In this document: positions 821 through 20,149 of the stretch, in pieces | Layout of the letters: each line of letters begins with the position of its first letter | Position numbering within the stretch: the first letter of the stretch is position 1 | DNA from: Flavobacterium palustre | Lineage (GTDB): Bacteria > Bacteroidota > Bacteroidia > Flavobacteriales > Flavobacteriaceae | DNA: 64,000 bases | Direction: 5' to 3' | Assembly (NCBI RefSeq): GCF_014639535.1 | Contig: NZ_BMGA01000009.1 | Span: 17,387 to 81,386, forward strand | Position numbers and translations under genes: made by a program | The notes under the pieces: generated by a model | Databases searched by the model: none | The model's input: the letters and a program-made list of their open reading frames with translations, nothing else | Told to the model about the DNA's origin: nothing

Positions 821-898
821 CGTGTATTCGGTTATTTGAATATTTGTTTATCCGGCAAATTAACGAATAAGCCCATAAACAAGAGGTGATATTAACAA

Positions 899-2673: not shown

Positions 2674-2689
2674 AACAGAATGTTTAAAA

Positions 2690-2720
2690 TTTGTGTGTGT
2701 AAAAGAAATTTGTATCTTTA
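2690..2720 (+). promoter_or_regulatory. Predicted recQ promoter
   Basis: TTTG at 2690-2693 is separated by 19 bases from TATCTTTA at 2713-2720, close to the Bacteroidota -33/-7 consensus (TTTG, TAnnTTTG). Transcription would start near 2727, about 32 bases before the recQ ATG. The last base of the -7 box deviates (A instead of G). Confidence 0.5.
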
Positions 2721-2727
2721 TGTGATG

Positions 2728-2735
2728 CAAATTTA
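2728..2735 (-). promoter_or_regulatory. Predicted kdsD -7 box
   Basis: On the minus strand these bases read TAAATTTG, a perfect TAnnTTTG. No clear -33 TTTG lies at the usual spacing. The predicted start near 2721 leaves a leader of about 48 bases to the TTG at 2673 and excludes the TTG at 2730 as a start codon. Confidence 0.4.
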
Positions 2736-2758
2736 TACAAAATACCAGATAATAAAGA

Positions 2759-5058: not shown

Positions 5059-5292
5059 CTAATAAAGTACAGCTCGATGTGGCTTTAATGCATCTCTGAC
5101 CTGAATCATATTTTCATCGGTAACAACCATAAATGCGATAGCCTGCATTTCGCCCTGAATTTCAAATCCGGTGATGTTTAACGACAATTTTTCAATAGCG
5201 ATATATTCTTTCAAATGAATTTCGTGATGTTCGGCTGTTTTAGCTGCTGCAGGACCACGAAAATCCCAAATCATTTTTATTTTTCTGGACAT
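5059..5292 (-). CDS. Small conserved protein of unknown function (77 aa)
   Basis: A 77-residue soluble protein with no signal peptide and no recognisable catalytic motif. It starts MSRKIKMIWDFRGP and has a conserved-looking AEHHEIHLKEYI segment followed by a beta-rich half (FEIQGEMQAIAFMVVTDENM). The composition and alternating hydrophobic pattern suggest a small ferredoxin-like alpha/beta fold, which is inference only. It is monocistronic, convergent with recQ, and its upstream region carries the long inverted repeat at 5368-5459. I do not recognise a function. Confidence 0.75.
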   Translation of the reverse strand: MSRKIKMIWDFRGPAAAKTAEHHEIHLKEYIAIEKLSLNITGFEIQGEMQAIAFMVVTDENMIQVRDALKPHRAVLY

Positions 5293-5367
5293 TTTTTCTA
5301 AAGATGTTTAGGTTCTAAGGTGCAAAGTTACAAAGTCTGTTTTACGAAGAAGAAAAAAGTTGCTACA

Positions 5368-5459
5368 TAATTAACCGCAAAGTACGCTAAAATTTAATTT
5401 CACTTTGTGTTTTTATACAACCAGATCTTAAAAAACTTAGCGCACTTTGCGGTTAATTA
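5368..5459. repeat. Long inverted repeat, 23-bp arms
   Basis: The left arm 5368-5390 (beginning TAATTAACCGCAAAGT) and the right arm 5437-5459 (ending TTTGCGGTTAATTA) are reverse complements with a single mismatch in 23 positions, around a 46-base AT-rich loop. Related words (AACTTTGCGCTAAAATTA) recur at 36111-36129, so this looks like a dispersed flavobacterial intergenic repeat rather than a gene-specific signal. Confidence 0.75.
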
Positions 5460-5480
5460 CATAAAGTTATTTCAAAATAG

Positions 5481-5488
5481 TATTTTTG
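5481..5488 (+). promoter_or_regulatory. Predicted -7 box for the FAD oxidoreductase gene
   Basis: TATTTTTG matches TAnnTTTG exactly and would place the start near 5495, 40 bases before the ATG at 5535. I see no good -33 element at the usual spacing. Confidence 0.4.
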
Positions 5489-5534
5489 CAACTTCTTTCA
5501 TAAAAAGAAAGCTAATTAGAATAAATAAGATACC

Positions 5535-7112
5535 ATGCCAAAAGAACTTTTACTTCAGGTAACTCCGGAAATAGCTGCCAACGAATTGTTGCTTAAAGAC
5601 TATTTATCTAAACAGATAAAAGTTGCTCCAAATGAAATTCAGCATATTGCTATTTTAAAACGTTCCATTGATGCGCGCCAAAAAGCGATAAAAATCAATC
5701 TGAAGGTTCTTATTTATCTAAATGGCGAATCGTATCAGGAGAATATTTTACAACTTCCGGATTATCCCAATGTGACCAATGCACAGGAAGTAATTGTGGT
5801 GGGAGCTGGTCCTGCCGGGCTTTTTGCTGCTTTGCAATTGATAGAATTAGGTCTGAAGCCAATTCTTATCGAACGCGGAAAAGATGTTCGTGGTCGCCGT
5901 AGGGATTTAAAAGCGATCAACCGTGATCATGTAGTTGATGAAGATTCTAATTATTGTTTTGGTGAAGGCGGAGCAGGAACGTATTCGGATGGGAAATTAT
6001 ATACCCGTTCTAAGAAAAGAGGTGATGTCAATCGAATTTTAGAATTATTGGTGGCTTTTGGGGCTACTCCCGATATTTTAGTAGATGCACATCCACACAT
6101 TGGAACGAATAAATTGCCTAAAATCATCGAAGATATTCGTGAGAAAATAAAAGAATGTGGCGGTCAGGTTTTATTTGAAACCCGAGTAACTGATATTTTA
6201 GTTAAAAATAATGAGATTGAAGGAATTGTAACTCATAAAGGCGATACTATTTTAGCTAACAAATTAATTTTAGCTACCGGACATTCTGCCAGAGATATTT
6301 TCGAATTATTAGACAGAAAAAAAATAGTAATTGAAGCAAAGCCTTTTGCTTTAGGTGTTCGTGCCGAACATCCGCAATCGTTAATTGACAGTATTCAATA
6401 CAGCTGTGATTACCGTGGTGAATTGTTGCCACCTGCTCCTTATAGCATTGTAAAACAAGTAGGAGGAAGAGGAATGTATTCGTTTTGTATGTGTCCCGGC
6501 GGTGTGATTGCTCCTTGTGCAACGAGTCCGGGCGAAGTGGTTACAAATGGCTGGTCGCCTTCTAAAAGAGATCAGGCTACCGCCAATTCTGGAATTGTAG
6601 TAGAGTTAAAATTAGAAGATTTTAAGCCTTTTGCAAAATTTGGCGCTTTGGCCGGAATGGAATTTCAAAAGAGCATCGAACAAAAAGCCTGGCATTTGGC
6701 AGGTCAGACTCAAAAAGTACCGGCTCAAAAAATGATTGATTTTACGCAATCTAAAATTTCGAAAGATATTCCTAAGACTTCTTATGTGCCCGGAACAACT
6801 TCGGTTGAATTAGGGCAGGTTTTCCCTGGTTTTTTGACCCAAATATTACGTGAAGGATTTACTGCTTTTGGGAAATCTATGAAAGGCTATCTGACCAATG
6901 AGGCGGTACTTCATGCGCCTGAGTCCAGAACTTCATCACCAGTGCGAATTCCGAGAGACGGAATAACATTAGAGCATTTGCAAATTAAAGGTTTGTATCC
7001 TTGCGGAGAAGGCGCCGGTTATGCAGGCGGAATTATTTCGGCAGCAATTGATGGTGAAAAATGTGCCTTGATGATTGGCGAAGCTTTGAAGAAAAATAAA
7101 GTCATTCGCTAA
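5535..7112 (+). CDS. FAD-dependent oxidoreductase (NAD(P)/FAD Rossmann)
   Basis: A 525-residue cytoplasmic flavoprotein. An N-terminal domain of about 85 residues (beta-alpha, with SIDARQKAIKINLKVLIY) precedes the dinucleotide-binding motif VVGAGPAG (about 88-95), with the acidic end of the second strand in LIERGK. Further signatures are CFGEGGAGTYSDGKLYTRSK, an ATGHSARDIFELL segment, and the C-terminal FAD-contacting CGEGAGYAGGIISAAIDG. This organisation is that of the widespread uncharacterised FAD-dependent dehydrogenase family (COG2509-like). The substrate is unknown. The cysteine-rich FCMCPGGVIAPCA segment in the middle is typical of the family. It stands alone, with no operon partner. 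Confidence 0.88.
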   Translation: MPKELLLQVTPEIAANELLLKDYLSKQIKVAPNEIQHIAILKRSIDARQKAIKINLKVLIYLNGESYQENILQLPDYPNVTNAQEVIVVGAGPAGLFAALQLIELGLKPILIERGKDVRGRRRDLKAINRDHVVDEDSNYCFGEGGAGTYSDGKLYTRSKKRGDVNRILELLVAFGATPDILVDAHPHIGTNKLPKIIEDIREKIKECGGQVLFETRVTDILVKNNEIEGIVTHKGDTILANKLILATGHSARDIFELLDRKKIVIEAKPFALGVRAEHPQSLIDSIQYSCDYRGELLPPAPYSIVKQVGGRGMYSFCMCPGGVIAPCATSPGEVVTNGWSPSKRDQATANSGIVVELKLEDFKPFAKFGALAGMEFQKSIEQKAWHLAGQTQKVPAQKMIDFTQSKISKDIPKTSYVPGTTSVELGQVFPGFLTQILREGFTAFGKSMKGYLTNEAVLHAPESRTSSPVRIPRDGITLEHLQIKGLYPCGEGAGYAGGIISAAIDGEKCALMIGEALKKNKVIR

Positions 7113-8978: not shown

Positions 8979-11900
8979 ATGTTTACAAAATTCATACACA
9001 GACCCGTACTGTCGATAGTTATATCGCTGATGATAGTACTTTTGGGGGCATTGTCATTGACGCAATTGCCTATGACCCAATTTCCTGATATTGCACCACC
9101 CGAGGTTACTGTAACTACCAAATATACTGGTGCTAATGCTGAAGCCTGCGTGAAAGCTGTGGTAACCACTTTGGAACGAGCTGTAAATGGAGTTCCCGGA
9201 ATGGCTTATATGTCGTCGGTTTCCGGAAATGACGGAACCAGTGTTATCAATATCATTTTTAATGCCGGTACTGATCCGGAAATTGCCGCTGTAAACGTAC
9301 AGAACAGAGTTTCCTCAGTTTTGGACGAACTACCCGAAGAGGTAATTAAATCGGGAGTTATTGTTGAAAAAGTACAAAACAGTATGTTGTTGTACCTCAA
9401 CATTTTGAGTTCGGATACCAAATTAGACGAAAAATTCCTGTACAACTTTGCCGATATTAATATCCTTCCTGAGCTGAAACGTATTGAAGGAGTTGGATTT
9501 GCTGATATTATGGGACAACGCGAATACGCTATGCGTGTGTGGCTGAATCCTGTTAAAATGGCTTCTTATAATATTTCTACCGAAGAAGTAGTGCAAAGTT
9601 TAAAACAGCAAAACATTGAGGCTGCTCCCGGAAAAGTGGGAGAAAGTTCGGGTAAAATAGAACAATCACTGCAATATGTAGTGAAATATACAGGGAAATA
9701 CAATACCAAAGAGCAGTATGAGAACGTAATTATTAAAAGAGATTTTCAGGGCGAATTATTGCGTTTAAAAGATATTGCTGAAGTAGAATTTGGCTCACTG
9801 GACTACGACGTTCTTTCTAAAGAAAATGGTAAGCCATCTGCAGCAATTGTGTTAAAACAACGTCCGGGAAGTAATGCCAGCGATGTAATTGAAAATATCA
9901 AAAGCAAGATGGAGGAATTAAAAACCTCTTTTCCGGCTGGAATTTCATACACTTACAGCTATGATGTTTCGAATTTCCTGAACGCATCGGTAGAAGGAGT
10001 ATTGCATACTTTGGTGGAAGCGTTTTTATTAGTGGCTTTAGTGGTTTTTATCTTCTTAGGAGATTTTCGTTCGACACTTATTCCTGCTATTGCCGTTCCG
10101 GTATCGCTTATCGGGACTTTTTTCTTTATGCAGTTGTTCGGGTTTTCCATTAACCTGATTACTCTGTTTGCCTTGGTGCTTGCTATCGGTATTGTGGTAG
10201 ATAATGCCATTGTTGTAGTGGAAGCGGTTCATGCCAAAATGGAAGAAGAACACCTTGAGGCTAAAGAGGCTACTGAAAGTGCAATGCACGAAATAGGAGG
10301 AGCCATTATAGCGATTACCTTAGTGATGGCTGCGGTATTTATTCCGGTTGCTTTTCTTCCCGGTCCTGCGGGAGTTTTCTACCGTCAGTTCTCTGTCACT
10401 ATGGCTATTGCCATTGTACTTTCAGGGATTAGTGCTTTGACTCTTACGCCTGCTTTGTGCGCAATGATGTTGAAAAATACGCACGGACAAGCTAAAAAAG
10501 ACAACTGGATCAATCGTTTTATTGATTCGTTTAACAAGCAATACAATAAGATATCAGATCGTTACCGAAAATTATTAGGATTAATAGTTAACCGTCGTGT
10601 AGTAACTATTGTGAGCTTACTGATTTTCTGTGTTGCAACTATGGGCTTAGGGAAATTATTGCCTACCGGATTTATTCCAAATGAAGACCAGGGGACCATT
10701 TATGCGAGTATCACAACTCCGTCCGGAGCTACCCTTGAGCGTTCGGAAGCAATTGTTGATGCAATTCAGGAAGTGGCTATGAAAAACGAAGGAGTTGCTT
10801 CGGTTTCAACTCTGGCAGGATATAATTTCCTGACAGATGGAACAGGTGCTTCTTACGGAATGAATTTAATCAGTTTGAAAAGCTGGAACGACCGTAAAAA
10901 TGCTACCGACCAGGATATTATTCAGGAATTAAAAGAAAAAACCAATCATATTAAGGATGCTAAAATTGAGTTTTTCACGCCACCTCCTGTGCCCGGATAC
11001 GGAAATTCCAGTGGATTTGAACTCCGAATTTTAGATAAAACCGGAAAAGGGGATTTGAAAAAACTCGAAGAGGTAGCTCAGAATTTTGCTGCTGAATTAA
11101 ATAAAAATGAGGCTATTAAGAATACTTTTTCCTCTTTTGATGCCAGTTTTCCGCAGTATTTGGTCAATATTGACAATACCAAAGCTGCCCAAAAAGGAGT
11201 CAACATCAACGAAGTCTTAAGCACTTTACAGACTTATTTGGGAAGTGATTATGCCACCAACTTTATCCGATTCAATCAGATGTACAAAGTGATGGTGCAG
11301 TCATCACCGGAATACCGGGCTAAACCCGAAGATATTTTGAAATTGTATGCCAAAAACTCCGAAGGTGAAATGGTGGCAATGTCTTCGTTTTTATCTATCG
11401 AAAAAGTTTACGGACCGGAGCAAATTACCCGTTACAACATGTACACTTCGGCTATGTTAAATGGAGAGCCGAAAGAAGGTTACAGTAGTGGTCAGGCAAT
11501 TGAAGCTATAAAAACCATTGCAGCTGAAAAACTGCCTAAAGGTTATGGATATGATTGGGGAGGATCCTCACGTGAACAGGCCAATTCAGGTAACGAAGCG
11601 ATATACATTTTCTTAATTTGTTTGTTGTTTATTTACTTTTTATTGGCAGCGCAATACGAGAGTTTTCTGTTGCCATTACCGGTGATTTTATCCTTGCCTA
11701 CAGGAATCTTAGGAGCCTTTTTTCTATTGGCTGCTTTGGGATTAGAGAATAATATTTACGCTCAGGTAGCAATGGTAATGCTCATTGGGTTATTAGGTAA
11801 AAATGCCGTATTAATTATCGAATTTGCAGTATTGCGTCACAAAGAAGGACTTCCTCCGTTGCGGGCTGCTATTGAAGGGGCAACAGCGCGTTTACGTCCT

Positions 11901-12143
11901 ATTTTGATGACTTCATTTGCTTTTGTTGCCGGATTAATTCCGTTGATGCTGGCCTCTGGAGCCGGTGCCATTGGAAACAGAACTATCGGAACAGCCGCAG
12001 CCGGAGGAATGTTTTTCGGAACCGTTTTCGGAGTACTGATTATTCCGGGCTTGTATTTCATATTTGCCACTATTTCCGAGAAAAATATCCTTATTGAAGG
12101 AGAAGAAGAAAATCCATTAACCGAAGAAATTGATTCCTTATAA
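8979..12143 (+). CDS. RND efflux pump permease (AcrB/HAE1 family)
   Basis: Inner-membrane proton-driven drug/hydrophobe exporter of 1054 residues, the normal length for HAE1 pumps. The start MFTKFIHRPVLSIVISL is typical, and two large periplasmic domains alternate with two six-helix membrane blocks. The fourth helix carries LAIGIVVDNAIVVVEAVH. AcrB has two adjacent aspartates here (D407, D408), and this protein has Asp-Asn. The tenth helix keeps the relay lysine in GLLGKNAVLIIEFA, and PVSLIGTFFFMQLFGFSIN is a family hallmark. It overlaps the outer-membrane channel gene by one base (TAATG). It probably exports antibiotics, dyes or detergents, but the specificity is unknown. Confidence 0.95.
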   Translation: MFTKFIHRPVLSIVISLMIVLLGALSLTQLPMTQFPDIAPPEVTVTTKYTGANAEACVKAVVTTLERAVNGVPGMAYMSSVSGNDGTSVINIIFNAGTDPEIAAVNVQNRVSSVLDELPEEVIKSGVIVEKVQNSMLLYLNILSSDTKLDEKFLYNFADINILPELKRIEGVGFADIMGQREYAMRVWLNPVKMASYNISTEEVVQSLKQQNIEAAPGKVGESSGKIEQSLQYVVKYTGKYNTKEQYENVIIKRDFQGELLRLKDIAEVEFGSLDYDVLSKENGKPSAAIVLKQRPGSNASDVIENIKSKMEELKTSFPAGISYTYSYDVSNFLNASVEGVLHTLVEAFLLVALVVFIFLGDFRSTLIPAIAVPVSLIGTFFFMQLFGFSINLITLFALVLAIGIVVDNAIVVVEAVHAKMEEEHLEAKEATESAMHEIGGAIIAITLVMAAVFIPVAFLPGPAGVFYRQFSVTMAIAIVLSGISALTLTPALCAMMLKNTHGQAKKDNWINRFIDSFNKQYNKISDRYRKLLGLIVNRRVVTIVSLLIFCVATMGLGKLLPTGFIPNEDQGTIYASITTPSGATLERSEAIVDAIQEVAMKNEGVASVSTLAGYNFLTDGTGASYGMNLISLKSWNDRKNATDQDIIQELKEKTNHIKDAKIEFFTPPPVPGYGNSSGFELRILDKTGKGDLKKLEEVAQNFAAELNKNEAIKNTFSSFDASFPQYLVNIDNTKAAQKGVNINEVLSTLQTYLGSDYATNFIRFNQMYKVMVQSSPEYRAKPEDILKLYAKNSEGEMVAMSSFLSIEKVYGPEQITRYNMYTSAMLNGEPKEGYSSGQAIEAIKTIAAEKLPKGYGYDWGGSSREQANSGNEAIYIFLICLLFIYFLLAAQYESFLLPLPVILSLPTGILGAFFLLAALGLENNIYAQVAMVMLIGLLGKNAVLIIEFAVLRHKEGLPPLRAAIEGATARLRPILMTSFAFVAGLIPLMLASGAGAIGNRTIGTAAAGGMFFGTVFGVLIIPGLYFIFATISEKNILIEGEEENPLTEEIDSL

Positions 12144-13573
12144 TGATGTCACGAATAAAAATAATAACAGGATGTGTCGCTCTTGTACTTTTTGCGCTGG
12201 GATGTAAAACCGCAGTAATTCCTCCAACGGAGGCCATCAAGCCGCTGCCGGAATTCTATACAGCCTCAAAAGATACAATCAATGTCGCTGCAACCAAATG
12301 GGATGTGTTTTACAAAGATGCTTATCTGAAGCAATTAATAGAAACCACCTTGGCTAATAACTACGATTTATTAGCCGCAATGCAAAAAATTGAAATCGCT
12401 CGAAACACCGTACGTTTTAACAAAGGCGCACAATTGCCAAGTTTGAATGCAGGTATTGGTGCTGCCCAACGCAAATTTGGGTTGTACACCATGGACGGTG
12501 CCGGAAACGCTACAACAGACATGCTGCCCGGACAAAGAGTGCCGGAACACTTACCGGATTATCTGGTAGGATTCAACGCCAGCTGGGAAGTTGATGTTTG
12601 GGGCAAACTCCGTTCTAAGAAAAAGGCTGCTTTGGCTCGTTACAGCTCTAGTATAGAGGCAAAAAATGCCATACAAACTGCGCTGATTGCTGAAGTTGCC
12701 GCTACTTATTTTGAGTTATTGGCTTTGGATAACGAATTGGATATTATCAGAGAAACCATTTTATTACAACAAGCGGCCTTAGCCATTATTAAAATTAAAA
12801 AACAAGCAGCTGTTTTGAACGAATTGGCTGTGAAACAATTTGAAGGTCAGGTTTCCAATTCAAAAGCGCTTGAATTTGAAATTTTGCAGAAAATTACCGT
12901 TGCTGAAAACAAATTAAATTTCTTGAGTGGTCAGTTTTCCAAAACCGTTTTGCGGGACAAAACAAAATTTAATACTCTCGACAGCCAACTTATAAGCGTG
13001 GGGATTCCATCGCAACTCCTTAAAAACAGACCTGATATTCGTCAGGCTGAGTTGGAATTGTTTGCTTCAAAATGTGATGTAAAATCGGCTAAAGCTGCTT
13101 TTTATCCATCGTTTACAATAACCGGAAGTGTAGGTTATCAGGCTTTCAAGACAGCTCTCCTGTTTCAGGCACCCGAATCGTTTGCTTATAGTATTTTGGG
13201 AGGATTAAGCGCTCCTTTGCTAAACCGAAATGCCATCAAAGCGCAGTTCAATACGGCCAAAGCGAATCAAACAGAAGCCCTGCTTAATTATCAGAGAATC
13301 ATTTTGTCAGGCTATTTCGAGGTAGCAAATGAATTGTCGAATCTGAATAATTTAAAGCAATTCTATGAATTAAAAGAAAAAGAAGTGGCTACTTATACAC
13401 AAAGTACCGCTATTGCAAATGATCTTTTTAAATCAGGAAGAGCCAGCTATTTAGAGGTTTTAATGAGTCAGCGTACGGCTTTAGAATCCAAAATAGAATT
13501 GATTACTACCCGAAAATTACAGCATCAGTCAGCAATCCATCTCTACAAAGCTCTGGGAGGCGGATGGCAATAA
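12143..13573 (+). CDS. Outer-membrane efflux channel (TolC/OprM-type) lipoprotein
   Basis: A 476-residue outer-membrane factor that completes the tripartite RND pump. The signal peptide ends in a lipobox with Cys21 (FALGC). Two repeated OEP halves follow, with the typical alpha-barrel sequences (WEVDVWGKLRSKKKAALARY; IPSQLLKNRPDIRQAELEL; AAFYPSFTITGSVGY). The GIPSQLLKNRPDIRQAE stretch is diagnostic of the NodT/OprM class. The ATG overlaps the permease stop, and a second ATG follows at once (MMSR), either of which may be used. The strong terminator at 13637 closes the operon. Confidence 0.95.
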   Translation: MMSRIKIITGCVALVLFALGCKTAVIPPTEAIKPLPEFYTASKDTINVAATKWDVFYKDAYLKQLIETTLANNYDLLAAMQKIEIARNTVRFNKGAQLPSLNAGIGAAQRKFGLYTMDGAGNATTDMLPGQRVPEHLPDYLVGFNASWEVDVWGKLRSKKKAALARYSSSIEAKNAIQTALIAEVAATYFELLALDNELDIIRETILLQQAALAIIKIKKQAAVLNELAVKQFEGQVSNSKALEFEILQKITVAENKLNFLSGQFSKTVLRDKTKFNTLDSQLISVGIPSQLLKNRPDIRQAELELFASKCDVKSAKAAFYPSFTITGSVGYQAFKTALLFQAPESFAYSILGGLSAPLLNRNAIKAQFNTAKANQTEALLNYQRIILSGYFEVANELSNLNNLKQFYELKEKEVATYTQSTAIANDLFKSGRASYLEVLMSQRTALESKIELITTRKLQHQSAIHLYKALGGGWQ

Positions 13574-13636
13574 GCCGGTATCTGTTTTGGTATCGTTTTA
13601 GCTTGTAATTTAGAGTACAAATTGTAACAGCATTAG

Positions 13637-13674
13637 AGGTTGTTTGAAAATTAGTTTTCAAACAACCTTTTTTT
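13637..13674 (+). terminator. Terminator of the RND efflux operon
   Basis: AGGTTGTTTGAAAA (13637-13650) pairs perfectly with TTTTCAAACAACCT (13655-13668) over a 4-base loop, followed by T668-T674. It isolates the pump operon from the cassette array downstream. Confidence 0.9.
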
Positions 13675-13802
13675 ACGCATTATCTTTTCATCAAAGGCAA
13701 ATAATAAAAATTGCGCTGTTGCCCCGAGGCTTTTGTGAAAAAGAAAAGAGTTTTGAATATATATGAAAAGTATTTGAATAAATTAAATATCTTTCTTGTT
13801 TA

Positions 13803-13831
13803 TTTGTAATAAAAATATTATTCTATATTTG
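13803..13831 (+). promoter_or_regulatory. Promoter reading into the cassette array
   Basis: TTTG (13803-13806), a 17-base spacer and TATATTTG (13824-13831) make one of the best Bacteroidota promoter matches in the window. The start would fall near 13838, just before the first palindromic junction, so the promoter reads through all three cassettes, whose four genes are all on the plus strand. The position is like that of the Pc promoter of integrons; that role is inferred. Confidence 0.55.
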
Positions 13832-13840
13832 TGAAATAAT

Positions 13841-13920
13841 GCGCTATAAAGTAGCGACTATACACCCAAAATAGGGTAGATTGTCGCTACTTTGTAGCGA
13901 GTATATACTAGTTATGTGCC
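13841..13920 (+). repeat. Cassette junction A (short, divergent attC/attI-like site)
   Basis: Arms 13848-13867 (beginning AAAGTAGCGAC) and 13874-13893 (ending GTCGCTACTTT) form a strong hairpin. The right-hand core GTTATGTGCC lies at 13911-13920 and belongs to cassette 1. The left side has only GCTATAA (13843-13849), which resembles the GGCTATAAC core of junction C rather than the partner of GTTATGTGCC. At about 80 bp it is much shorter than junctions B-D and lacks the AACGTT motif (it reads CTAGTT). It may be the attI-like entry point or a decayed junction. Confidence 0.5.
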
Positions 13921-13947
13921 ATTTAACAGCAGAATCGGAAATAAAAA

Positions 13948-14796
13948 ATGAAACAAAGGGAATTTACATCAATAGGATTTATTTTAAGCTTGGTCATTTT
14001 ACTTCTAAATGATTTTTATTTAAAAAGTCTTTACGGAAATTGGCTAACTGGAAAATTATCTGACTTTGCTGGATTATTTATTTTTCCCTTATTTTGGACA
14101 ATTCTATTTCCAAAATTGAAAGATAAAATATACTTTGCATCTGCTATTTTATTCATTTATTGGAAAACAGTTTACAGTGAACCTTTAATTGAAATTATAA
14201 ATCAATATTCTATAATTAACCTGAATAGAGTTGTTGATTTGACTGATTTATTAGCATTACTAATTTTACCATTTTCCTACTCATATCATCAAAAAGACAA
14301 TAAAAATTTCATAACTATTAATCCAACATTTATTGTTATTTTAACCTGTTTTTCTTTTATAGCTACTAGCTATGATTCAGAAATAGAATATAAAAACGAA
14401 TATACTTTTGACTTTCCTATTGATACTCTTAAAACAAAAATTTATTACCTGAAAACTATTTCTAACCAATATGAGAAAGAAAAAGAAAATTACATTTTAG
14501 ACTCAACTGGAAAATACAAAATTCATAAATATTATTGGGACACAATTGATGCAAAAAAGCCACCTATTGATAAGTTTGTGAAAGACACAGTGGCCTTATT
14601 TATTTTCGAAGATTTTTGTTTTGAAGGATATGACGCAAAACTTGTAATTAGTGGCGATAATACGAAATCAAAAATCAAAGTTTTAGGCTTTCATCATAAA
14701 TGCCCAAAAGATGAAAAGACTTTAACACATTGGAATGATGACGAAGAAATATTATCTAAATCATTTGAGAAAAAAGTCATCCAACAACTAAAATAA
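13948..14796 (+). CDS. Cassette 1 cargo: multi-pass membrane protein of unknown function
   Basis: A 282-residue protein whose N-terminal half has about five hydrophobic segments (roughly 9-25, 38-55, 60-75, 98-112 and 126-145) with a conserved-looking loop GNWLTGKLSDFAGLFIFPLF (about 31-50). A hydrophilic C-terminal domain of about 130 residues, rich in lysine, aspartate and tyrosine, follows. The KLSDFAGL motif suggests a real family, but I cannot name it. It is the only gene in cassette 1, starts 36 bases after the GTT cut of junction A, and ends 4 bases before the left core of junction B. Its codon use resembles the host (GAT for Asp) more than that of the next cassettes. Confidence 0.7.
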   Translation: MKQREFTSIGFILSLVILLLNDFYLKSLYGNWLTGKLSDFAGLFIFPLFWTILFPKLKDKIYFASAILFIYWKTVYSEPLIEIINQYSIINLNRVVDLTDLLALLILPFSYSYHQKDNKNFITINPTFIVILTCFSFIATSYDSEIEYKNEYTFDFPIDTLKTKIYYLKTISNQYEKEKENYILDSTGKYKIHKYYWDTIDAKKPPIDKFVKDTVALFIFEDFCFEGYDAKLVISGDNTKSKIKVLGFHHKCPKDEKTLTHWNDDEEILSKSFEKKVIQQLK

Positions 14797-14800
14797 AAAC

Positions 14801-14937
14801 GGCACATAACACACGCTACAAGCAATTTGGGTTTTAGGCTTAATTTGAAATTGGTTGTCTATTTGGAAGATTTGGCAAATCCGAAGAATGGGCTTAATTT
14901 AGTCCCAAACTGCTTGTAGCGCGAGAACGTTATAGCC
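14801..14937 (+). repeat. Cassette junction B (attC-like, 137 bp)
   Basis: The left core GGCACATAAC (14801-14810) and the right core AACGTTATAGCC (14926-14937) flank an 11-bp perfect stem, CGCTACAAGCA (14814-14824) against TGCTTGTAGCG (14911-14921), continuing into TTTGGG/CCCAAA. The right side carries four extra bases between core and stem (the GTT-side insertion), giving the site a direction. The loop holds a direct repeat GGCTTAATTT. Confidence 0.75.
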
Positions 14938-14943
14938 AATTTT

Positions 14944-15201
14944 ATGAACGACACACTTAACGACTTTAAAGTAAAGGACAGACAAAGCTTCATTAAGTTT
15001 CTTGACTTATTACGCAAGAACTTTTTGGATAATCCTGAAAGTTGGGAAAATAAAACTTTGCCTGACTTTTTAGAAGCGTTAAGTGCATACACAGAAGACG
15101 TTCAAGGTTATTACGACAATATGAAACTAAATGTAAACGCTGACAAACCAGACTGGTCAACATTTGCCGATATTTTTAAAGGAGCGAAAATTTACGAATA
15201 G
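14944..15201 (+). CDS. Cassette 2 cargo: DUF7660-like small acidic protein
   Basis: An 85-residue soluble protein with a helical N-terminal half (DRQSFIKFLDLLRKNFLDNPESWENKTLPDFLEAL, split here by a proline) and the ending WSTFADIFKGAKIYE. The pattern of 'ESW-NKTL--FLEAL-A---D--GYY' and the terminal W..FAD.F..AKIYE match what I know of the DUF7660 family, common in small-gene arrays; the function is unknown. The ATG is 7 bases after the core of junction B, typical of tightly packed cassette genes. Aspartate codons are mostly GAC, unlike the GAT preference of surrounding genes, suggesting a foreign origin. The next gene follows 5 bases later. Confidence 0.75.
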   Translation: MNDTLNDFKVKDRQSFIKFLDLLRKNFLDNPESWENKTLPDFLEALSAYTEDVQGYYDNMKLNVNADKPDWSTFADIFKGAKIYE

Positions 15202-15206
15202 AAGAA

Positions 15207-15659
15207 ATGACCAGGCAGGAACAAATATATAATTGGCTAACAACTGGACTTCAACAACCAACCGACCGATTTTCGGAGATATTCTATTACGATAAAAGAG
15301 ATAATGAATTTTTCTCAATTCTTGTCACAGACTATTTTATGTTTGACGAAAACTTGAATATTGCGAAAGACATAACAACGACTTACTCCAAAGAAAATCT
15401 TGAAACGCTTATTGACAGAATAAGGCGAATAGAAAACAAGGACGTTGCAATTATTTCTTTGCCAAGGCTGGGTAATTCACCAAATACTGCGGACACAGAA
15501 TTCATTTCTCAGCAAACAGAGAGTTTTTTAAACTTAAATTCAATTAACATTGAGACAGCAACAATTTGGGAAGTTGAAGAAAGTGGAACAATAACCATTG
15601 ACCTAAAAAATGAAAGAGAATCATTGATTAAAAAACCTTGGTGGAAAGTATGGAAATAA
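15207..15659 (+). CDS. Cassette 2 cargo: protein of unknown function (150 aa)
   Basis: A 150-residue soluble protein with no signal peptide. It begins MTRQEQIYNWLTTG, has a beta-rich acidic centre (DNEFFSILVTDYFMFDEN), and ends in a basic tryptophan-rich tail (KKPWWKVWK) often seen in short cytoplasmic Bacteroidota proteins. I do not recognise the family. It lies 5 bases after the DUF7660-like gene in the same cassette, making a two-gene unit. An inhibitor/antidote or stress function would be a guess. GAC-rich codon use is shared with the preceding gene. The stop codon is 5 bases before the left core of junction C. Confidence 0.65.
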   Translation: MTRQEQIYNWLTTGLQQPTDRFSEIFYYDKRDNEFFSILVTDYFMFDENLNIAKDITTTYSKENLETLIDRIRRIENKDVAIISLPRLGNSPNTADTEFISQQTESFLNLNSINIETATIWEVEESGTITIDLKNERESLIKKPWWKVWK

Positions 15660-15664
15660 AAACT

Positions 15665-15802
15665 GGCTATAACAGGGGTTTTGCGAAATTGGGGCTGAAG
15701 TGCTAAATTAAAACATTCGGAATTTTTATGTACATTAGTGCTAGGCTGAAACGAAGTGCATTTTAAACCCCAACTTCGCAAAGCCCCGAAACGTTATGTG
15801 CC
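15665..15802 (+). repeat. Cassette junction C (attC-like, 138 bp)
   Basis: The left core is GGCTATAAC (15665-15673) and the right core AACGTTATGTGCC (15790-15802). The stem arms GGGGTTTTGCGAAATTGGGG (15675-15694) and 15768-15787 pair at 18 of 20 positions. The same four-base asymmetry on the right is present. Left and right cores differ from each other, but each matches the outer end of its own cassette. Confidence 0.75.
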
Positions 15803-15824
15803 ATTTTAAGACAACGACAACAAA

Positions 15825-16337
15825 GTGACAGAGAAAATCAACAAAATATTACAAGACTTAGTTGGACTTCCCTTGACAAGGACGACCAGAGCTTCAAATA
15901 TGGAGTGTTTAAAATTTGGGACTTTATATCTCAAAGACAGAGAAGGTGAGACTTGGAATTCTGGAGAATTTGGATTACACCTTCAATGTCCTTGGCGTTT
16001 GACAAATGACAACGAAATAATTGTTGGCAGTAACGACTTATATGAACAAGCAGACGAAACAGCGGACTATGACGAAAATTTTAATTGGGAAGAGTTCAAC
16101 GCAAATTTAAGGGACGTAAAACTTGACAGGTTTATATCAGAAACTAAACACTTAGTAAAATCAGCATTTGCAGACAATTTTGGCGGACTTCAAATATGTT
16201 TTGACAGTAATGTAGTTTTGACTGTTTTTCCTGTAATCGCATCAAAGGCGGACAACGAACATTGGCGACTACTTGACAACAGGGATGAAACTAAAAATCA
16301 TTTTATTAGTAAATCAACAGGCTATGTTTTGGACTGA
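15825..16337 (+). CDS. Cassette 3 cargo: protein of unknown function (170 aa, GTG start)
   Basis: A 170-residue soluble protein starting with GTG at 15825, 23 bases after the core of junction C. An N-terminal LVGLPLTRTTRASNMECLKFG and GEFGLHLQCPWRL, followed by a VGSNDLY segment, recall a widespread uncharacterised family in which 'GLPL-G--RA--M--F-FG' and 'LH-QC-WR' are conserved; I recall the pattern but cannot give a function. An acidic middle (ADETADYDENFNWEEFN) precedes the C-terminal beta region. It uses GAC heavily, as cassette 2 does. The stop is 24 bases before the left core of junction D. Confidence 0.7.
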   Translation: MTEKINKILQDLVGLPLTRTTRASNMECLKFGTLYLKDREGETWNSGEFGLHLQCPWRLTNDNEIIVGSNDLYEQADETADYDENFNWEEFNANLRDVKLDRFISETKHLVKSAFADNFGGLQICFDSNVVLTVFPVIASKADNEHWRLLDNRDETKNHFISKSTGYVLD

Positions 16338-16361
16338 CAATTACACGACCGAAAGAAAAAC

Positions 16362-16497
16362 GGCACATAACAGCACCTACCCAAAAGGCGGGGTTTCGTG
16401 CTCCGCAGACAGTTTTGTGGTTAATCAAACATTAGTTTTTCAAATCAAGTTTTGTGGTATAATTTTGTTTTTTGGGTAGCTGCAAAACGTTATGAGC
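16362..16497 (+). repeat. Cassette junction D (attC-like, 136 bp)
   Basis: The left core is GGCACATAAC (16362-16371) and the right core AACGTTATGAGC (16486-16497). TACCCAAAA (16378-16386) pairs with TTTTGGGTA (16470-16478), and a direct repeat GTTTTGTGGT lies in the loop. The four-base right-hand asymmetry is again present. The right core GTTATGAGC has no matching GCTCATAAC downstream before 16640, so this is the end of the array or the stub of a lost cassette. Confidence 0.7.
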
Positions 16498-16584
16498 AAC
16501 CCCAGCTCTCAAAAGACTCTTTAAAAACAAGAACAACATTAATTAGCATCATCCGAAACTAAATCAGAAACATTTCTTATAAGC

Positions 16585-16619
16585 AAAACAAGCTATCTTT
16601 TTTAAGGATAGCTTGTTTT
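16585..16619. terminator. Bidirectional terminator between cassette array and GH2 gene
   Basis: AAAACAAGCTATC (16585-16597) pairs perfectly with GATAGCTTGTTTT (16607-16619), with A and T runs on either side. It serves both the plus-strand array and the minus-strand galactosidase gene ending at 16641. Confidence 0.8.
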
Positions 16620-16640
16620 GTTATTAGTTTTAAAAAGTAA

Positions 16641-18974
16641 TTATTTCTTCTCAGCAACAATTTCAACAGGAATTGAACCTGGTGTCAGACCTTCAACATC
16701 CGCTTTAATTGTAATTGTGCCGTTGTCTTTAGCTGCTTTAATAATTGCAATGGCGCTACCCTGATACGCTCTGGTTGCAGGACCTTGGTAGCCTTCGTGG
16801 TCAATAATATTTCCGTTGTCCACAGCAACAATTTTACCGGAATCCGTAATAGAGAATTTGATTAGATTATCAGCATTCGCGCATCGGATTCCTTTTTCGT
16901 CCACAATAGTTGCGGTAATAAAAGTCACATCATCCCAGTTGTTAGCAACCGTAGCATTGCTTTTGGTCAGGATAATTTTTGCCGGTTTTCCTGCTGAGGT
17001 ATGTTCTTCCTGAGCCACAATTTTTCCGTTGTTTTTTCCAATGGCTTTGATAGTGCCTTCTTCAAAAGTAACATTCCATTCTCTTGGCGAATCATCGGCA
17101 GGTTTTTTCAAAGAACCTAATGATTTATCATTCAGAAAAAGTTCTACTTCGTCGCAGTTACTATATACATTTATTTTGGCATTGTCATACGTATCGAAAT
17201 CATTTGGCGTCCAGTCGGCAACCCAAAATCCAGCTCCTGCATTATCTGATTTTCGAACAATATGAACAACCGGTTCTTCAGACCACCAGCTGTCTCTTTG
17301 CAAAGATTGTTGTTTCCAGTTTCCGGCTCTGTCAAATAATCCTTGATTGTTAGTGGTTTCCGGCCAATCGGCTTCGCCTAAATAATCGTAACCGGTCCAT
17401 AAAAATTGTCCAGCCATGTATGGTTTGTCTCTTAAGGCTAACCATTGGTTCAATACATGTGTGTTTTCAGTACCAATAACTTTCCATGTCGGATTTGCTT
17501 CGTGAGCAGCTATCAGTTCGTTTTCACGGTAATTTTGCCCTACAACGTCCATTTGTGCTGCAAAACCGCTAAGATATACTTTAGAATTTGCCGGTCTGAA
17601 AAGCGCCATTGTTACAGGTCTGGTATTATCATATTTTTTAACTACATCTTCCTGCATTTTATACGTTTTGTAGCCTTCAGGATAACTTAAATTATCATGG
17701 ATTTCATTTCCAATGCTGTAAATCACAATCGAAGGATGATTTCGGTCTCTCAAAATCATATCTTTCGTGTCCTGTTCCCACCAATCCTTAAAGTTTAGAT
17801 TGTATCCTTTTTCACCATTGTGTTTGGCAGCCGTCCAGGTATCGAAAGTTTCATCCATAACCACAAATCCCATTTGATCACACAAATCCAAAAATTCAGG
17901 TGCTACAGGATTATGAGAAGTACGAATTCCGTTTACGCCCACTTCTTTTAGTTTTTTCAAACGTTCTTTCCAAACGCCAAGCGGAACGGCAGCTCCCACA
18001 GCGCCACCATCGTGATGCAGACAAACACCTTTTATTTTGTAATTTTTGTTGTTCAACCAAAAACCGGTTTCGGCTCTAAATTCGGCATTTCTGATTCCAA
18101 TAGTTGTCGTCTCATTATCGATAAGCGTTTTTCCGGAATACAATTTGGTAGTTACAGTATATAAATTGGGTGCTTCAATATTCCATAATTTAGGATTGAT
18201 GATTTCAATCTCTTTTGATAATTCGTTGTTTTTTCCGGCGACAATATTTTCCTGACTTTCTATAGATTTCACGACTTTTCCGCTGTTATCAATAATGTCA
18301 ATCTGTAATTTATAAGTTCCGGCAACTCCGTTTTCTATTTCCGTTTTTATATTTATTACCGCTTTTTTTGCAGTAGGATTAGGTGTCGTAATTTGTGTTC
18401 CCCAATGTTTAAAATGGGTTTTGTTTACAGCAACTAATCGTACATGGCGATAGATTCCTGCTCCGGTATAATAGCGTGAAGCGGGTTGGATTGTATTGTC
18501 TGCACGAACTGCAATTACGTTGTTTTTTCCTTTTCCAAAGTTCAAATACGGAGTTAAATCATATACAAAACTGATGTAGCCGTAAGGCCGTTTGCCTAAA
18601 TGTTTGCCGTTAATCCAAACCTCGCTGTTGGCCATCACGCCATCAAATTCGATAGAAAATAATTTTTTTGAATCGGCTTCGTCTAATTGAAATGTTTTGC
18701 GGTACCAGCCAATTCCGGCAGGCAAATAACCGCCACCACGGGCTGTAGGGTTTTCACGGTCATAAGGACCTTCGATGCTCCAATCGTGTGGAACATCCAG
18801 TGTTCTCCAGCTTTTATCATTGAAATCTAATTTTTCAGCTCCAGCAATTTCTCCTTTTATAAATTGCCAGTTGGCGTCAAAGTTGATTGTTTTTCGCACT
18901 TGAGCAAAAACTGTAGTTGTAAATGCTAAAAAGAATAAAAGACTGTAGGTTTTTATATTTTTATGTTTTTTCAT
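16641..18974 (-). CDS. Glycoside hydrolase family 2 beta-galactosidase, secreted
   Basis: A 777-residue exo-glycosidase with a signal peptide (cut after about residue 25, VFAQ). Domains in order are a sugar-binding jelly roll (about 30-185), an Ig-like sandwich (about 190-295), a TIM barrel (about 300-560), then a DUF4982-like domain and a C-terminal Ig-like domain. The acid/base is Glu424 in SIGNEIH and the likely nucleophile Glu503 in GTENTH. RTSHNPVAPEFLDLCDQMGF is the classical GH2 signature. It probably removes beta-galactosyl units, such as galactan side chains of rhamnogalacturonan I. This substrate is inferred from the neighbouring pectin esterases. Periplasmic location is likely. It is the distal minus-strand gene of the utilisation locus. 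Confidence 0.92.
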   Translation of the reverse strand: MKKHKNIKTYSLLFFLAFTTTVFAQVRKTINFDANWQFIKGEIAGAEKLDFNDKSWRTLDVPHDWSIEGPYDRENPTARGGGYLPAGIGWYRKTFQLDEADSKKLFSIEFDGVMANSEVWINGKHLGKRPYGYISFVYDLTPYLNFGKGKNNVIAVRADNTIQPASRYYTGAGIYRHVRLVAVNKTHFKHWGTQITTPNPTAKKAVINIKTEIENGVAGTYKLQIDIIDNSGKVVKSIESQENIVAGKNNELSKEIEIINPKLWNIEAPNLYTVTTKLYSGKTLIDNETTTIGIRNAEFRAETGFWLNNKNYKIKGVCLHHDGGAVGAAVPLGVWKERLKKLKEVGVNGIRTSHNPVAPEFLDLCDQMGFVVMDETFDTWTAAKHNGEKGYNLNFKDWWEQDTKDMILRDRNHPSIVIYSIGNEIHDNLSYPEGYKTYKMQEDVVKKYDNTRPVTMALFRPANSKVYLSGFAAQMDVVGQNYRENELIAAHEANPTWKVIGTENTHVLNQWLALRDKPYMAGQFLWTGYDYLGEADWPETTNNQGLFDRAGNWKQQSLQRDSWWSEEPVVHIVRKSDNAGAGFWVADWTPNDFDTYDNAKINVYSNCDEVELFLNDKSLGSLKKPADDSPREWNVTFEEGTIKAIGKNNGKIVAQEEHTSAGKPAKIILTKSNATVANNWDDVTFITATIVDEKGIRCANADNLIKFSITDSGKIVAVDNGNIIDHEGYQGPATRAYQGSAIAIIKAAKDNGTITIKADVEGLTPGSIPVEIVAEKK

Positions 18975-19032
18975 TTCGGTGGGTTTATTTTTTATTGTGA
19001 CTATCCGTTCCTCATGTTAATTATTGAAAATG

Positions 19033-19124
19033 GCACGCAGATTAAGCTGATTTTAGCAGATTATCATAAATGTAATTTATGAAAAATCCGTTTTTATCTG
19101 TTCAATCGGTGTAATCTGTGTGCT
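19033..19124. repeat. Imperfect inverted repeat (flavobacterial intergenic type)
   Basis: A left arm around 19033-19062 (GGCACGCAGATTAAGCTGAT...) and a right arm around 19093-19124 (...GGTGTAATCTGTGTGCT) are imperfect reverse complements with the recurring word CAGATT. Non-coding; it looks like a dispersed intergenic repeat between the aldo/keto reductase and GH2 genes. A short hairpin GTCCGC-TTA-GCGGAC follows at 19138-19152. Confidence 0.6.
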
Positions 19125-19159
19125 ATTTTTTTATTTAGTCCGCTTAGCGGACAGTCATG

Positions 19160-20149
19160 CTATTTTAAAATGGAATTGATTTTGTCTAATTCGGCTGCGC
19201 TGAAAGCAGTGTTTTCCAAAGCCTTAATAGAATCTATAATTTGTGCCGGTTTGCTGGAGCCAATCAATACTGAAGTAATTCGCTCATCACGTAAAATCCA
19301 GGCTAGAGCCATTTGCGCTAATTTTTGACCACGTTCTTTAGCAATGTCGTTGAGTGCGATGATTTTTTCAAGTCTTTCGGTAGTAATATGTTCTTCTTTT
19401 AAGAATTGCCCGCTGGTGGCAACTCTCGAATCAGCCGGGATTCCGTTTAAATATTTATCAGTTAATAGTCCTTGTGCCAAAGGCGAAAACGGAATGCAGC
19501 CTACTTTTTCTTTTCCTAGTAAATCAAAAAGTCCGTCTTCAACCCAACGCTCAAACATCGAATATTTAGGCTGGTGAATTAAGCAGGGAGTTCCCATTTC
19601 TTTTAATAATTGAAAAGCTTTTTCCGCTTCGACTGGGCGGTAGTTCGAAATCCCTACATACAAAGCTTTTCCTTGTTGCACGATTAAATTCAATGCAGCC
19701 ATGGTTTCTTCTAAAGGTGTTTCCGGATCAGGTCTGTGATGGTAAAAGATATCTACATATTCTAAATCCATTCTTTTTAAACTCTGGTCTAAACTGGAAA
19801 CTAAATATTTTTTCGAACCCCAATCGCCATAAGGACCGTCCCACATGGTATAACCGGCTTTTGACGAAATTATCATTTCATCTCGGTGGTTTTTGAAATC
19901 CATTTTTAAAATTTTTCCCATACATTCTTCTGCCGAACCCGGAGGCGGACCATAATTGTTAGCCAAATCAAAATGAGTGATTCCGTTATCGAAAGCGGTT
20001 TTTATTAGGTTTCGGCTGTTTTCAAAATCGCTGTTCAGTCCGAAGTTGTGCCAAAGTCCCAATGAAAAAGCCGAAAGTTTCAATCCTGAGTTGCCGCATC
20101 GGCGGTATTCCATGTTTTCGTATCGGTTAGCTGCTGGTTGATATGTCAT
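19160..20149 (-). CDS. Aldo/keto reductase (L-glyceraldehyde-3-phosphate reductase-like)
   Basis: A cytoplasmic NADPH-dependent carbonyl reductase of 329 residues with a TIM-barrel pattern. The catalytic tetrad can be placed: Asp61 and Tyr66 (THFDLANNYG), Lys97 (ISSKAGY) and a His at about 137 (IFYHHRPD). The NNYGPPPGSAEE motif and the MWDGPYGDWGSKKYL insert are those of the YghZ/KvB-beta-like group, annotated as L-glyceraldehyde 3-phosphate reductases. It lies between lacI and GH2 and has a LacI-type operator 15 bases before its start, so it probably handles a sugar-derived aldehyde in the same regulon. The actual substrate is unknown. Confidence 0.9.
   Translation of the reverse strand: MTYQPAANRYENMEYRRCGNSGLKLSAFSLGLWHNFGLNSDFENSRNLIKTAFDNGITHFDLANNYGPPPGSAEECMGKILKMDFKNHRDEMIISSKAGYTMWDGPYGDWGSKKYLVSSLDQSLKRMDLEYVDIFYHHRPDPETPLEETMAALNLIVQQGKALYVGISNYRPVEAEKAFQLLKEMGTPCLIHQPKYSMFERWVEDGLFDLLGKEKVGCIPFSPLAQGLLTDKYLNGIPADSRVATSGQFLKEEHITTERLEKIIALNDIAKERGQKLAQMALAWILRDERITSVLIGSSKPAQIIDSIKALENTAFSAAELDKINSILK

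What the first reader, a model, noticed from the sequence alone, without database searches (positions are those of the whole stretch)
13838..16497. Integron-like gene-cassette array with a non-classical core
Seen in the sequence: three plus-strand cassettes carrying four unknown or DUF genes, separated by imperfect palindromes of 137, 138 and 136 bp (14801-14937, 15665-15802, 16362-16497). Each has a left core GGC(AC/T)ATAAC and a right core AACGTTATRDGC. Genes start as little as 7 bases after a core. Established knowledge: integron cassettes have one or two promoterless genes plus an attC palindrome, cut at G^TT. Inference: this is a Bacteroidota version of a cassette system whose core GTTATRD breaks the GTTRRRY rule, or an integron cluster lacking an integrase.
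Basis: partly seen in the sequence, partly recalled or inferred. Interest (0 to 1): 0.88.

Follow-up and report, generated by a model that had tools for sequence, protein, structure and literature searches.

The report
Integron-like gene cassettes in Bacteroidota
A bacterial genome carries movable gene cassettes built like those of integrons, the systems that collect antibiotic-resistance genes, but its recombinase lacks the protein part thought necessary for them, and the two ends of each cassette match each other in a pattern for which I found no description.

Summary
The palindromes are real. The window holds three cassettes (13912-14929, 14930-15793, 15794-16489) behind an orphan attI-like site (13838-13910). 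In 1.07 Mb, 102 such end pairs carry A·C at 11 and 9 anything else. The hairpin repeats the pattern: A·C at inner position 15 in 62 of 71. The same genome has a tyrosine recombinase followed after 102 nt by a five-cassette array. Of 100 recombinase loci scanned, 41 hold such units. Recombinase relatives occur in 94 of 296 Bacteroidota genomes (arrays not checked there). The recombinase lacks the additional (I2) domain of IntI: 25 residues where six canonical IntI have 65-66. One cassette is 97% identical between two species whose arrays otherwise differ. Best reading: a structure-reading cassette platform that works like an integron without IntI. No recombination was assayed. I found no description in open PMC papers; preprints were not searchable.

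The parts
13824..13831 (+). TATATTTG, match to the Bacteroidota promoter -7 motif TAnnTTTG (motif recalled), 87 nt before the first cassette; candidate cassette promoter
   Evidence: motif in 12 of 28 recombinase-attI gaps (1.6 expected by shuffling), and here at -87, as in L017
13838..13910 (+). orphan attI-like site (inverted repeats around ACCC/GGGT, ending TATATACTA before G|TT)
   Evidence: 71.6% over 95 nt to the attI-like site between recombinase and first cassette on C8; inverted repeat I3
13912..14929 (+). cassette 1 (inferred cut points G|TT at 13911/13912 and 14929/14930)
   Evidence: own ends pair over 14 nt, only mismatch at 11 (A/C)
13948..14796 (+). gene of cassette 1, 282 aa, no Pfam family above cut-off (membrane-like by eye)
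14797..14810 (+). left arm (R'') of attC-like site 1, pairs with 13911-13924
14811..14928 (+). hairpin of site 1; inner stem with A·C at its position 15
14930..15793 (+). cassette 2, two genes
14944..15201 (+). gene, 85 aa, DUF7660 (PF24693, E 3.6e-30)
15207..15659 (+). gene, 150 aa, weak DUF5881 (E 0.0055, under cut-off)
15660..15673 (+). left arm of site 2, pairs with 14929-14942
15674..15792 (+). hairpin of site 2; inner A·C at position 15
15794..16489 (+). cassette 3
15825..16337 (+). gene of cassette 3, 170 aa, no Pfam family
16358..16371 (+). left arm of site 3, pairs with 15793-15806
16372..16488 (+). hairpin of site 3 (last site; inner position 15 is paired, not A·C, and pairing beyond it is poor)

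Best explanation
It is an integron-like gene-cassette array, here without its recombinase gene. Each cassette is a small gene or gene pair plus a folding site. When the cassette is a circle, its two ends come together and one strand can fold into two inverted arms around a short unpaired centre. The outer arm is GTT-N7-A, paired with the cassette's own other end; the inner arm is mostly G-Y-T-N7-A. In both, pair 11 is usually A·C on the top strand, hence a T·G wobble on the bottom strand (shown in sequence). A tyrosine recombinase without the IntI additional domain, encoded elsewhere in the same genome next to an attI-like site and an array, most likely recognises this shape, reading GTT plus the wobble at pair 11 more than the seven variable bases (inferred). 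It would cut the bottom strand at G|TT and insert the cassette behind attI or attI-like sites (inferred). A promoter in the attI region may express the first cassettes (weakly supported).
For: Pairing rule, with no condition on position 11: of end pairs with 10 exact matches and at least 3 of 4 at positions 12-15, 102 are A·C at 11 and 9 are anything else; one Markov-1 resample gives 2 A·C. With a looser choice (positions 1-8 and a hairpin, 107 candidates, chance pairs left in): 61 A·C at 11 and 13 more read from the other strand; matches at 12-15 in 79, 80, 68, 62 and at 16 in 11. The 98 'type i' units were chosen with A·C at 11 and 1-10 paired, so their 98 of 98 proves nothing by itself; swapping ends among them lowers pairing at 4-10 to 38%, which shows the sequences are unit-specific. 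Inner arm: A·C at 15 in 62 of 71 alignable of 79 hairpins, neighbours 14 and 16 paired in 62 and 65 of 71. Strand: the own-end (circle) site folds better on the bottom strand in 70 of 74. Linkage: 126 units run in the recombinase's direction and 13 opposite, in 41 of 100 loci; the first unit lies 100-103 nt after the stop in 10 of 28 loci whose first unit is within 330 nt. Content: longest ORF sense in 136, antisense in 9, none in 5 of 150 units; 139 gene families among 145 proteins. Movement: one cassette 96.9% identical over 1319 nt between G011 and F. enshiense, its neighbours unrelated, recombinase region 69%.
Against: No recombination, circle or enzyme was assayed. 59 of 100 recombinase loci showed no unit by the rule; some end at a contig end, some belong to far relatives. 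Some units face the other way from the recombinase (13 of 139; L075, L103, L106, L122, L124, L127). The rule has variants: an A·A mismatch also at 10 (27 of 139 units) or a one-base bulge before the A·C (23 of 139). The seven bases are not wholly free: position 4 is A or G in 96 of 98 and position 8 is G in 60 of 98 type i units. The last window hairpin lacks the inner A·C. Circle-versus-array fold energies (74 of 74 in favour of the circle) are partly built in by how units were chosen. The cassette transfer rests on one pair of genomes. The promoter motif is missing in 16 of 28 gaps.
Confidence: 0.85

Rival explanations
1. A canonical integron of the IntI class, simply missed in Flavobacteria, with an ordinary but divergent integrase and attC sites.
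Against: Below the family cut-off of 265 bits, with profile positions 177-237 not matched. 25 residues (23-35 in the other rows) in the interval where six canonical IntI have 65-66. Those six form their own branch at 100* (quick tree). The canonical controls lack A·C at 11: 0 of 5 pairs in L157, and 12 straight pairs in one class 1 cassette (a small, rough control). Inner stems here align without a gap in 71 of 79.
Confidence: 0.08
2. Transposable elements with terminal inverted repeats (or IS200/IS605-type single-strand transposons) rather than cassettes moved by site-specific recombination.
For: Each unit does have 15-nt imperfect inverted termini and a hairpin; units are scattered over the genome as well as in arrays.
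Against: Units carry 139 gene families among 145 proteins, so no common transposase. Head-to-tail units share a joint at G|TT. Termini are not shared between units as in an element family; GTT and A·C are the fixed parts. Arrays lie beside a tyrosine recombinase. Target duplications were not searched for systematically.
Confidence: 0.04
3. The palindromes are intergenic repeats (REP/terminator-like) that happen to separate small genes.
For: Hairpin families recur in the genome, for example 89% and 86% copies on C1 and C3.
Against: 8 of 10 palindromes examined sit at the end of a unit whose start pairs with them 490-1570 nt upstream with a single mismatch at 11; one more (C3:269150) does with two mismatches; for one (C8:103399) its own start was not found. 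One whole unit is shared at 97% between two species.
Confidence: 0.02
4. Cassettes as described, but moved by another enzyme (XerC/D or a phage-type recombinase); the linked recombinase is a passenger.
For: Other Xer-like genes exist in the genome; NF040815 XerA_Arch scores 218.5 for the linked recombinase, just under its cut-off of 220.
Against: Recombinase-to-first-unit spacing is 100-103 nt in 10 of 28 loci, and units run in one direction (126 to 13) relative to it.
Confidence: 0.1

Closest known systems
Integron (IntI, attI, attC cassettes)
   Same: Recombinase gene with adjacent attI-like site; head-to-tail cassettes of one or two sense-oriented genes; joint at G|TT; cassette's own R'' pairs with its own R'; bottom strand folds better; core variable apart from AAC/GTT.
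   Different: Recombinase lacks the IntI additional (I2) domain and has an extra N-terminal ββαββα domain in many members; self-pairing runs to 15 nt with A·C at 11 (canonical: 9-11 consecutive pairs for most cassettes, PMC2727003, passages); inner stem mostly ungapped with A·C at 15 where canonical sites have extrahelical bases.
CALIN (cluster of attC sites lacking integrase)
   Same: The window array has attC-like sites and no recombinase gene beside it.
   Different: It keeps an attI-like site, and a recombinase is in the same genome; sites do not follow the canonical attC structure.
Treponema chromosomal integrons
   Same: Recombinase transcribed toward attI and in the cassette direction (PMC3607928, passages).
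   Different: Treponema attC sites have a protruding G (same passages); that its IntI has the additional domain is recalled, not tested.
XerA / XerC / XerD recombinases
   Different: Linked to cassette arrays; scores below the XerC, XerD and XerA cut-offs.
SMARCAL1 HARP domain / DUF5710
   Same: N-terminal domain: DUF5710 in 10 of 20 members, HARP in 2 of 20 (best E 7.3e-4); HARP structure 4o66 ranks first by Foldseek.

Membership tests
Integron sensu stricto (IntI family) | Tyrosine recombinase with catalytic R, K, H, R, H/W, Y | tested here: met
   conserved in the alignment; PF00589 E 3.5e-39
Integron sensu stricto (IntI family) | IntI-specific additional domain around patch III | tested here: not met
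   25 residues in P0001, 23-35 in the other non-IntI rows with the interval complete (8 of 80 locus rows incomplete), 65-66 in six rows taken as canonical IntI by this interval and their common branch; relatives of L148 on plasmids are annotated integron integrase. TIGR02249 200.8 under cut-off 265
Integron sensu stricto (IntI family) | attI site next to the recombinase gene, first cassette joined at G|TT | tested here: met
   by sequence comparison only
Integron sensu stricto (IntI family) | attC: cassette-own R''/R' pairing, folded single strand | tested here: met
   folding is computed, not measured
Integron sensu stricto (IntI family) | Conserved extrahelical bases in the L arm | tested here: not met
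   71 of 79 inner stems align without gap, A·C at 15 in 62 of 71; several of the rest have a one-base bulge before the A·C
Integron sensu stricto (IntI family) | Diverse promoterless genes in one orientation | tested here: met
   136 sense, 9 antisense, 5 none of 150; 139 families of 145; promoterlessness itself not tested
Integron sensu stricto (IntI family) | Cassette promoter Pc in the platform | tested here: inconclusive
   TAnnTTTG in 12 of 28 gaps, 1.6 expected
Integron sensu stricto (IntI family) | Recombinase-catalysed attC x attI and attC x attC recombination | not testable with these tools
   needs an assay; comparative support for one moved cassette
CALIN | Two or more attC sites without a neighbouring integrase | tested here: inconclusive
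   three attC-like sites and the recombinase only on contig C8; the canonical attC model was not run on them
XerC/XerD/XerA | Score above curated cut-off | tested here: not met
   XerC 180.5/335.15, XerD 184/329.6, XerA 218.5/220
HARP domain (N-terminal part) | Pfam HARP match or clear fold match | tested here: inconclusive

The most novel reading that the evidence does not exclude
A second lineage of cassette platforms, spread through Bacteroidota and with outliers in a Spirochaetota and a Firmicutes bin, in which a recombinase without the I2 domain reads DNA shape: two inverted arms GTT-N7-A around an unpaired centre, each marked chiefly by GTT and by a wobble at the eleventh pair. If it predates or parallels IntI, it supplies the intermediate form missing from the account of how folded attC sites and their reader arose together.
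Probability: 0.6. Interest if true: 0.95.

Novelty: new variant of a known kind. Interest (0 to 1): 0.9.

Why it matters
Integron evolution has an open puzzle, stated in PMC4792948 (passages) as a chicken-and-egg paradox: how could folded attC sites be selected before the I2 domain that reads them existed, or the domain before the sites? The authors say that such puzzles are solved by finding functional intermediary forms. A working cassette platform without that domain would be an intermediate or a parallel form, and it makes the question testable. It could also mean that many Bacteroidota have a cassette-collecting system that attC finders do not report: recombinase relatives are in 94 of 296 genomes and 62 of 139 genera sampled (arrays not checked there), while the passages seen of IntegronFinder 2.0 name one Bacteroidetes genome, Salinibacter ruber, with a complete integron (PMC9024848). 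A recombinase that reads a mismatch at a fixed distance across seven variable bases would be, to my knowledge, a new recognition principle.

Tried and rejected
Rfam search of 9000-20000 gave nothing above a gathering score. Left-flank gene (window 12143-13700) in six relatives: no DNA match, so no clean empty-site comparison for the window array; the right-flank gene gave a neighbourhood comparison instead. Canonical arrays in L147, L148, L152, L154, L155, L156 were too noisy with a 7-nt seed to serve as controls; L157 and one class 1 cassette were used. Among the five L157 pairs, one is complementary over 18 nt save position 5, and at least one spans more than one cassette, so this control is rough. 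L158 had no array by its annotation. HARP as the N-terminal fold: kept only as a lead. Strand-fold advantage of circle over array: kept, but partly circular. No covariance model was built; the pairing rule was more specific. Papers: ten searches (listings seen) and passages of PMC2426708, PMC9668308, PMC8618304, PMC9024848, PMC2727003, PMC4792948, PMC8352920, PMC3607928; PMC7370490 searched for four terms with no occurrence. None of what I saw describes these arrays; bioRxiv and most subscription journals are not held, so absence is not shown.
Full report
OBSERVATION. BLAST with the first palindrome finds further copies in the same 3.97-Mb genome, on contigs C1, C3 and C8.

THE KEY PATTERN. 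For ten palindromes I took the 14 nt ending in AAC and looked upstream for the reverse complement. In 8 of 10 it is found 490-1570 nt upstream, at the start of the gene unit that the palindrome ends, with a single mismatch in 14, at position 11. One (C3:269150) matches with mismatches at 6 and 11. For one (C8:103399) the only upstream match with a 10-nt run is the start of another unit, with mismatches at 11 and 13; its own start was not found. The seven bases after GTT differ between units. The pairing therefore links the two ends of one unit, not the two sides of one palindrome. That is what an excised circle brings together, as in integron cassettes (annealing of R'' and R' is described in PMC2727003, passages).

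STATISTICS. In 1,074,720 bases of this genome, its relatives and other recombinase loci, I counted GTT/AAC pairs 180-4000 nt apart that match over 10 nt and in at least three of positions 12-15, with no condition on position 11. Position 11 is A (start) opposite C (end) in 102 pairs and anything else in 9; one Markov-1 resample of the same loci gives 2 A·C pairs. With a looser choice (positions 1-8, plus a hairpin that ends in C|GTT, no condition beyond), 107 candidates give matches of 81, 58, 9, 79, 80, 68, 62 and 11 at positions 9 to 16, with 61 A·C at position 11 and 13 more read from the other strand. This list also holds chance pairs, which I did not remove. Pairing runs to 15 and stops. 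There are variants: an A·A mismatch also at 10 (27 of 139 units) and a one-base bulge before the A·C (23 of 139). The seven bases are variable but biased: position 4 is A or G in 96 and position 8 is G in 60 of 98 type i units (these units were chosen with A·C at 11).

THE INNER ARM. In 79 hairpins, 71 align without gaps between their two inner arms. Position 15 after AAC is A in 70 and A·C in 62 of 71, while positions 14 and 16 are paired in 62 and 65; position 7 is T in 69; position 5 is G in 46; position 6 is T or C in 55. The inner arm thus reads mostly G-Y-T-N7-A·C from its position 5, and the outer arm GTT-N7-A·C: two arms of the same build in inverted order around an unequal unpaired centre. 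In a recount over 74 chained hairpins, 58 are A·C at 15; of the 16 others, several show a one-base bulge before an A·C. Two of the three window hairpins show it; the last one does not. Canonical sites of the Thiodictyon plasmid do not show it and have no A·C at 11 (0 of 5 pairs), and one class 1 cassette pairs straight through 12. That control is small and rough.

RECOMBINASE. The own genome has a 347-aa tyrosine recombinase at C8:107737-108777 (minus; P0001), followed after 102 nt by a first unit and an array of five units in the same direction. Of 28 loci with the first unit within 330 nt of the recombinase stop, 10, this one included, have it 100-103 nt away. In all, 41 of 100 scanned recombinase loci hold 139 units, 126 in the recombinase's direction. 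Within the set L017, L057-L075, L077-L120 (64 loci, nearly all Bacteroidota) it is 37. L122, L124, L127 and L131 add four; of these only L124 (Firmicutes bin, four units) is convincing. A starred clade (L075, L103, L106) has units on the other side of the recombinase and facing away from it, as in classical integrons.

attI AND PROMOTER. The stretch before the first cassette holds inverted repeats. The window's site matches the C8 site at 71.6% over 95 nt; four other orphan arrays match over 41-57 nt at 84-89%; three (C3:49, C1:1183, C3:183) have no meaningful match and look, by eye, like attI types of other species. TAnnTTTG occurs in 12 of 28 recombinase-attI gaps against 1.6 expected, in 9 of the 12 at 87-109 nt before the cut.

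CASSETTES AND MOVEMENT. In 150 units the longest ORF is sense in 136, antisense in 9 and absent in 5; the 145 proteins form 139 families, two of the six matching pairs being one gene counted in overlapping units. Near the 3' end of the gene beside the window array (16641-18974, minus), G074 has one unit, G162 two by the rule about 3.3 kb away, and G005 the recombinase with an array. G011 and Flavobacterium enshiense share one cassette at 96.9% over 1319 nt (protein 98.5% over 199 aa), while their recombinase regions are 69% identical, other shared flank 76-78%, and no other cassette protein matches between the two. By eye the identity breaks within a few bases of G|TT on the right. On the left the preceding sites are themselves alike, so the left break is less sharp.

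SPREAD. Recombinase relatives (E at most 1e-45) are in 94 of 296 Bacteroidota genomes and 62 of 139 genera; arrays were not checked there. The scan of genome contigs kept the best 80 of at least 592 candidates. Loci with units include Flavobacterium, Algoriphagus, Algibacter, Aquiflexum, Rufibacter, Winogradskyella, Seonamhaeicola, Sphingobacteriales and Bacteroidales bins, and one unit in a Spirochaetota bin (L111). Bins can be contaminated.

MECHANISM. Shown: unit-own end pairing with A·C at 11, the same build in the inner arm, bottom strand lower in energy in 70 of 74 circle sites, linkage to the recombinase, gene diversity and one shared cassette among unlike neighbours. Inferred: that this recombinase does the work, that it reads GTT and the wobble (T·G on the bottom strand), that one strand is exchanged at G|TT and resolved by replication as in integrons, and that attI supplies a promoter. 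That seven bases vary but stay paired follows if shape more than sequence is read.

NOVELTY. The PMC passages seen place integrons in Bacteroidota only in passing, and IntegronFinder 2.0 names Salinibacter ruber. Ten searches found no description of these arrays or of an integrase without the additional domain that serves cassettes. Preprints were not searchable. I therefore call it a new variant of a known kind: it works like an integron, but fails two tested defining features of one (additional domain, extrahelical bases).

Noticed in passing
L124 (MAG Firmicutes bacterium HGW-Firmicutes-8), units at 611-4467 on the minus strand, recombinase 5060-5962: Four cassette units, all of the variant with mismatches at 10 and 11, facing away from a recombinase without additional domain that groups next to canonical IntI (support 94): a candidate link between the two lineages.
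   Followed up: partly
L122, L127 (Patescibacteria bins): One variant unit each, far from the recombinase; may be chance.
   Followed up: no
L075, L103, L106: A clade of these recombinases with the units facing away from the recombinase gene, the classical integron layout, where most others are co-directional.
   Followed up: partly
own genome C3:49, C1:1183, C3:183 (L022, L023, L026): Orphan cassettes preceded by attI-like sites that, by eye, resemble types seen beside recombinases of other species, not this genome's own type.
   Followed up: no
L017 10463-11841 (minus orientation): A cassette with an HxlR-like regulator divergent from a short-chain-dehydrogenase-like gene (names by eye): a cassette that may carry its own promoter.
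   Followed up: no
recombinase N-terminus, residues 1-60 (L081:10001-10192): Extra ββαββα domain with a W-S..W-x-P motif; weak pointers to HARP/DUF5710, the former with a DNA-fork role (role recalled).
   Followed up: partly
window 16641-18974 and its counterparts in G005, G074, G162: The 3' side of this glycosidase-like gene is a repeated neighbourhood of cassettes or the whole platform in the genus.
   Followed up: partly
L096 (Rufibacter), L100: Short cassette sites with hairpins of about 41-55 nt that keep the outer A·C rule.
   Followed up: no
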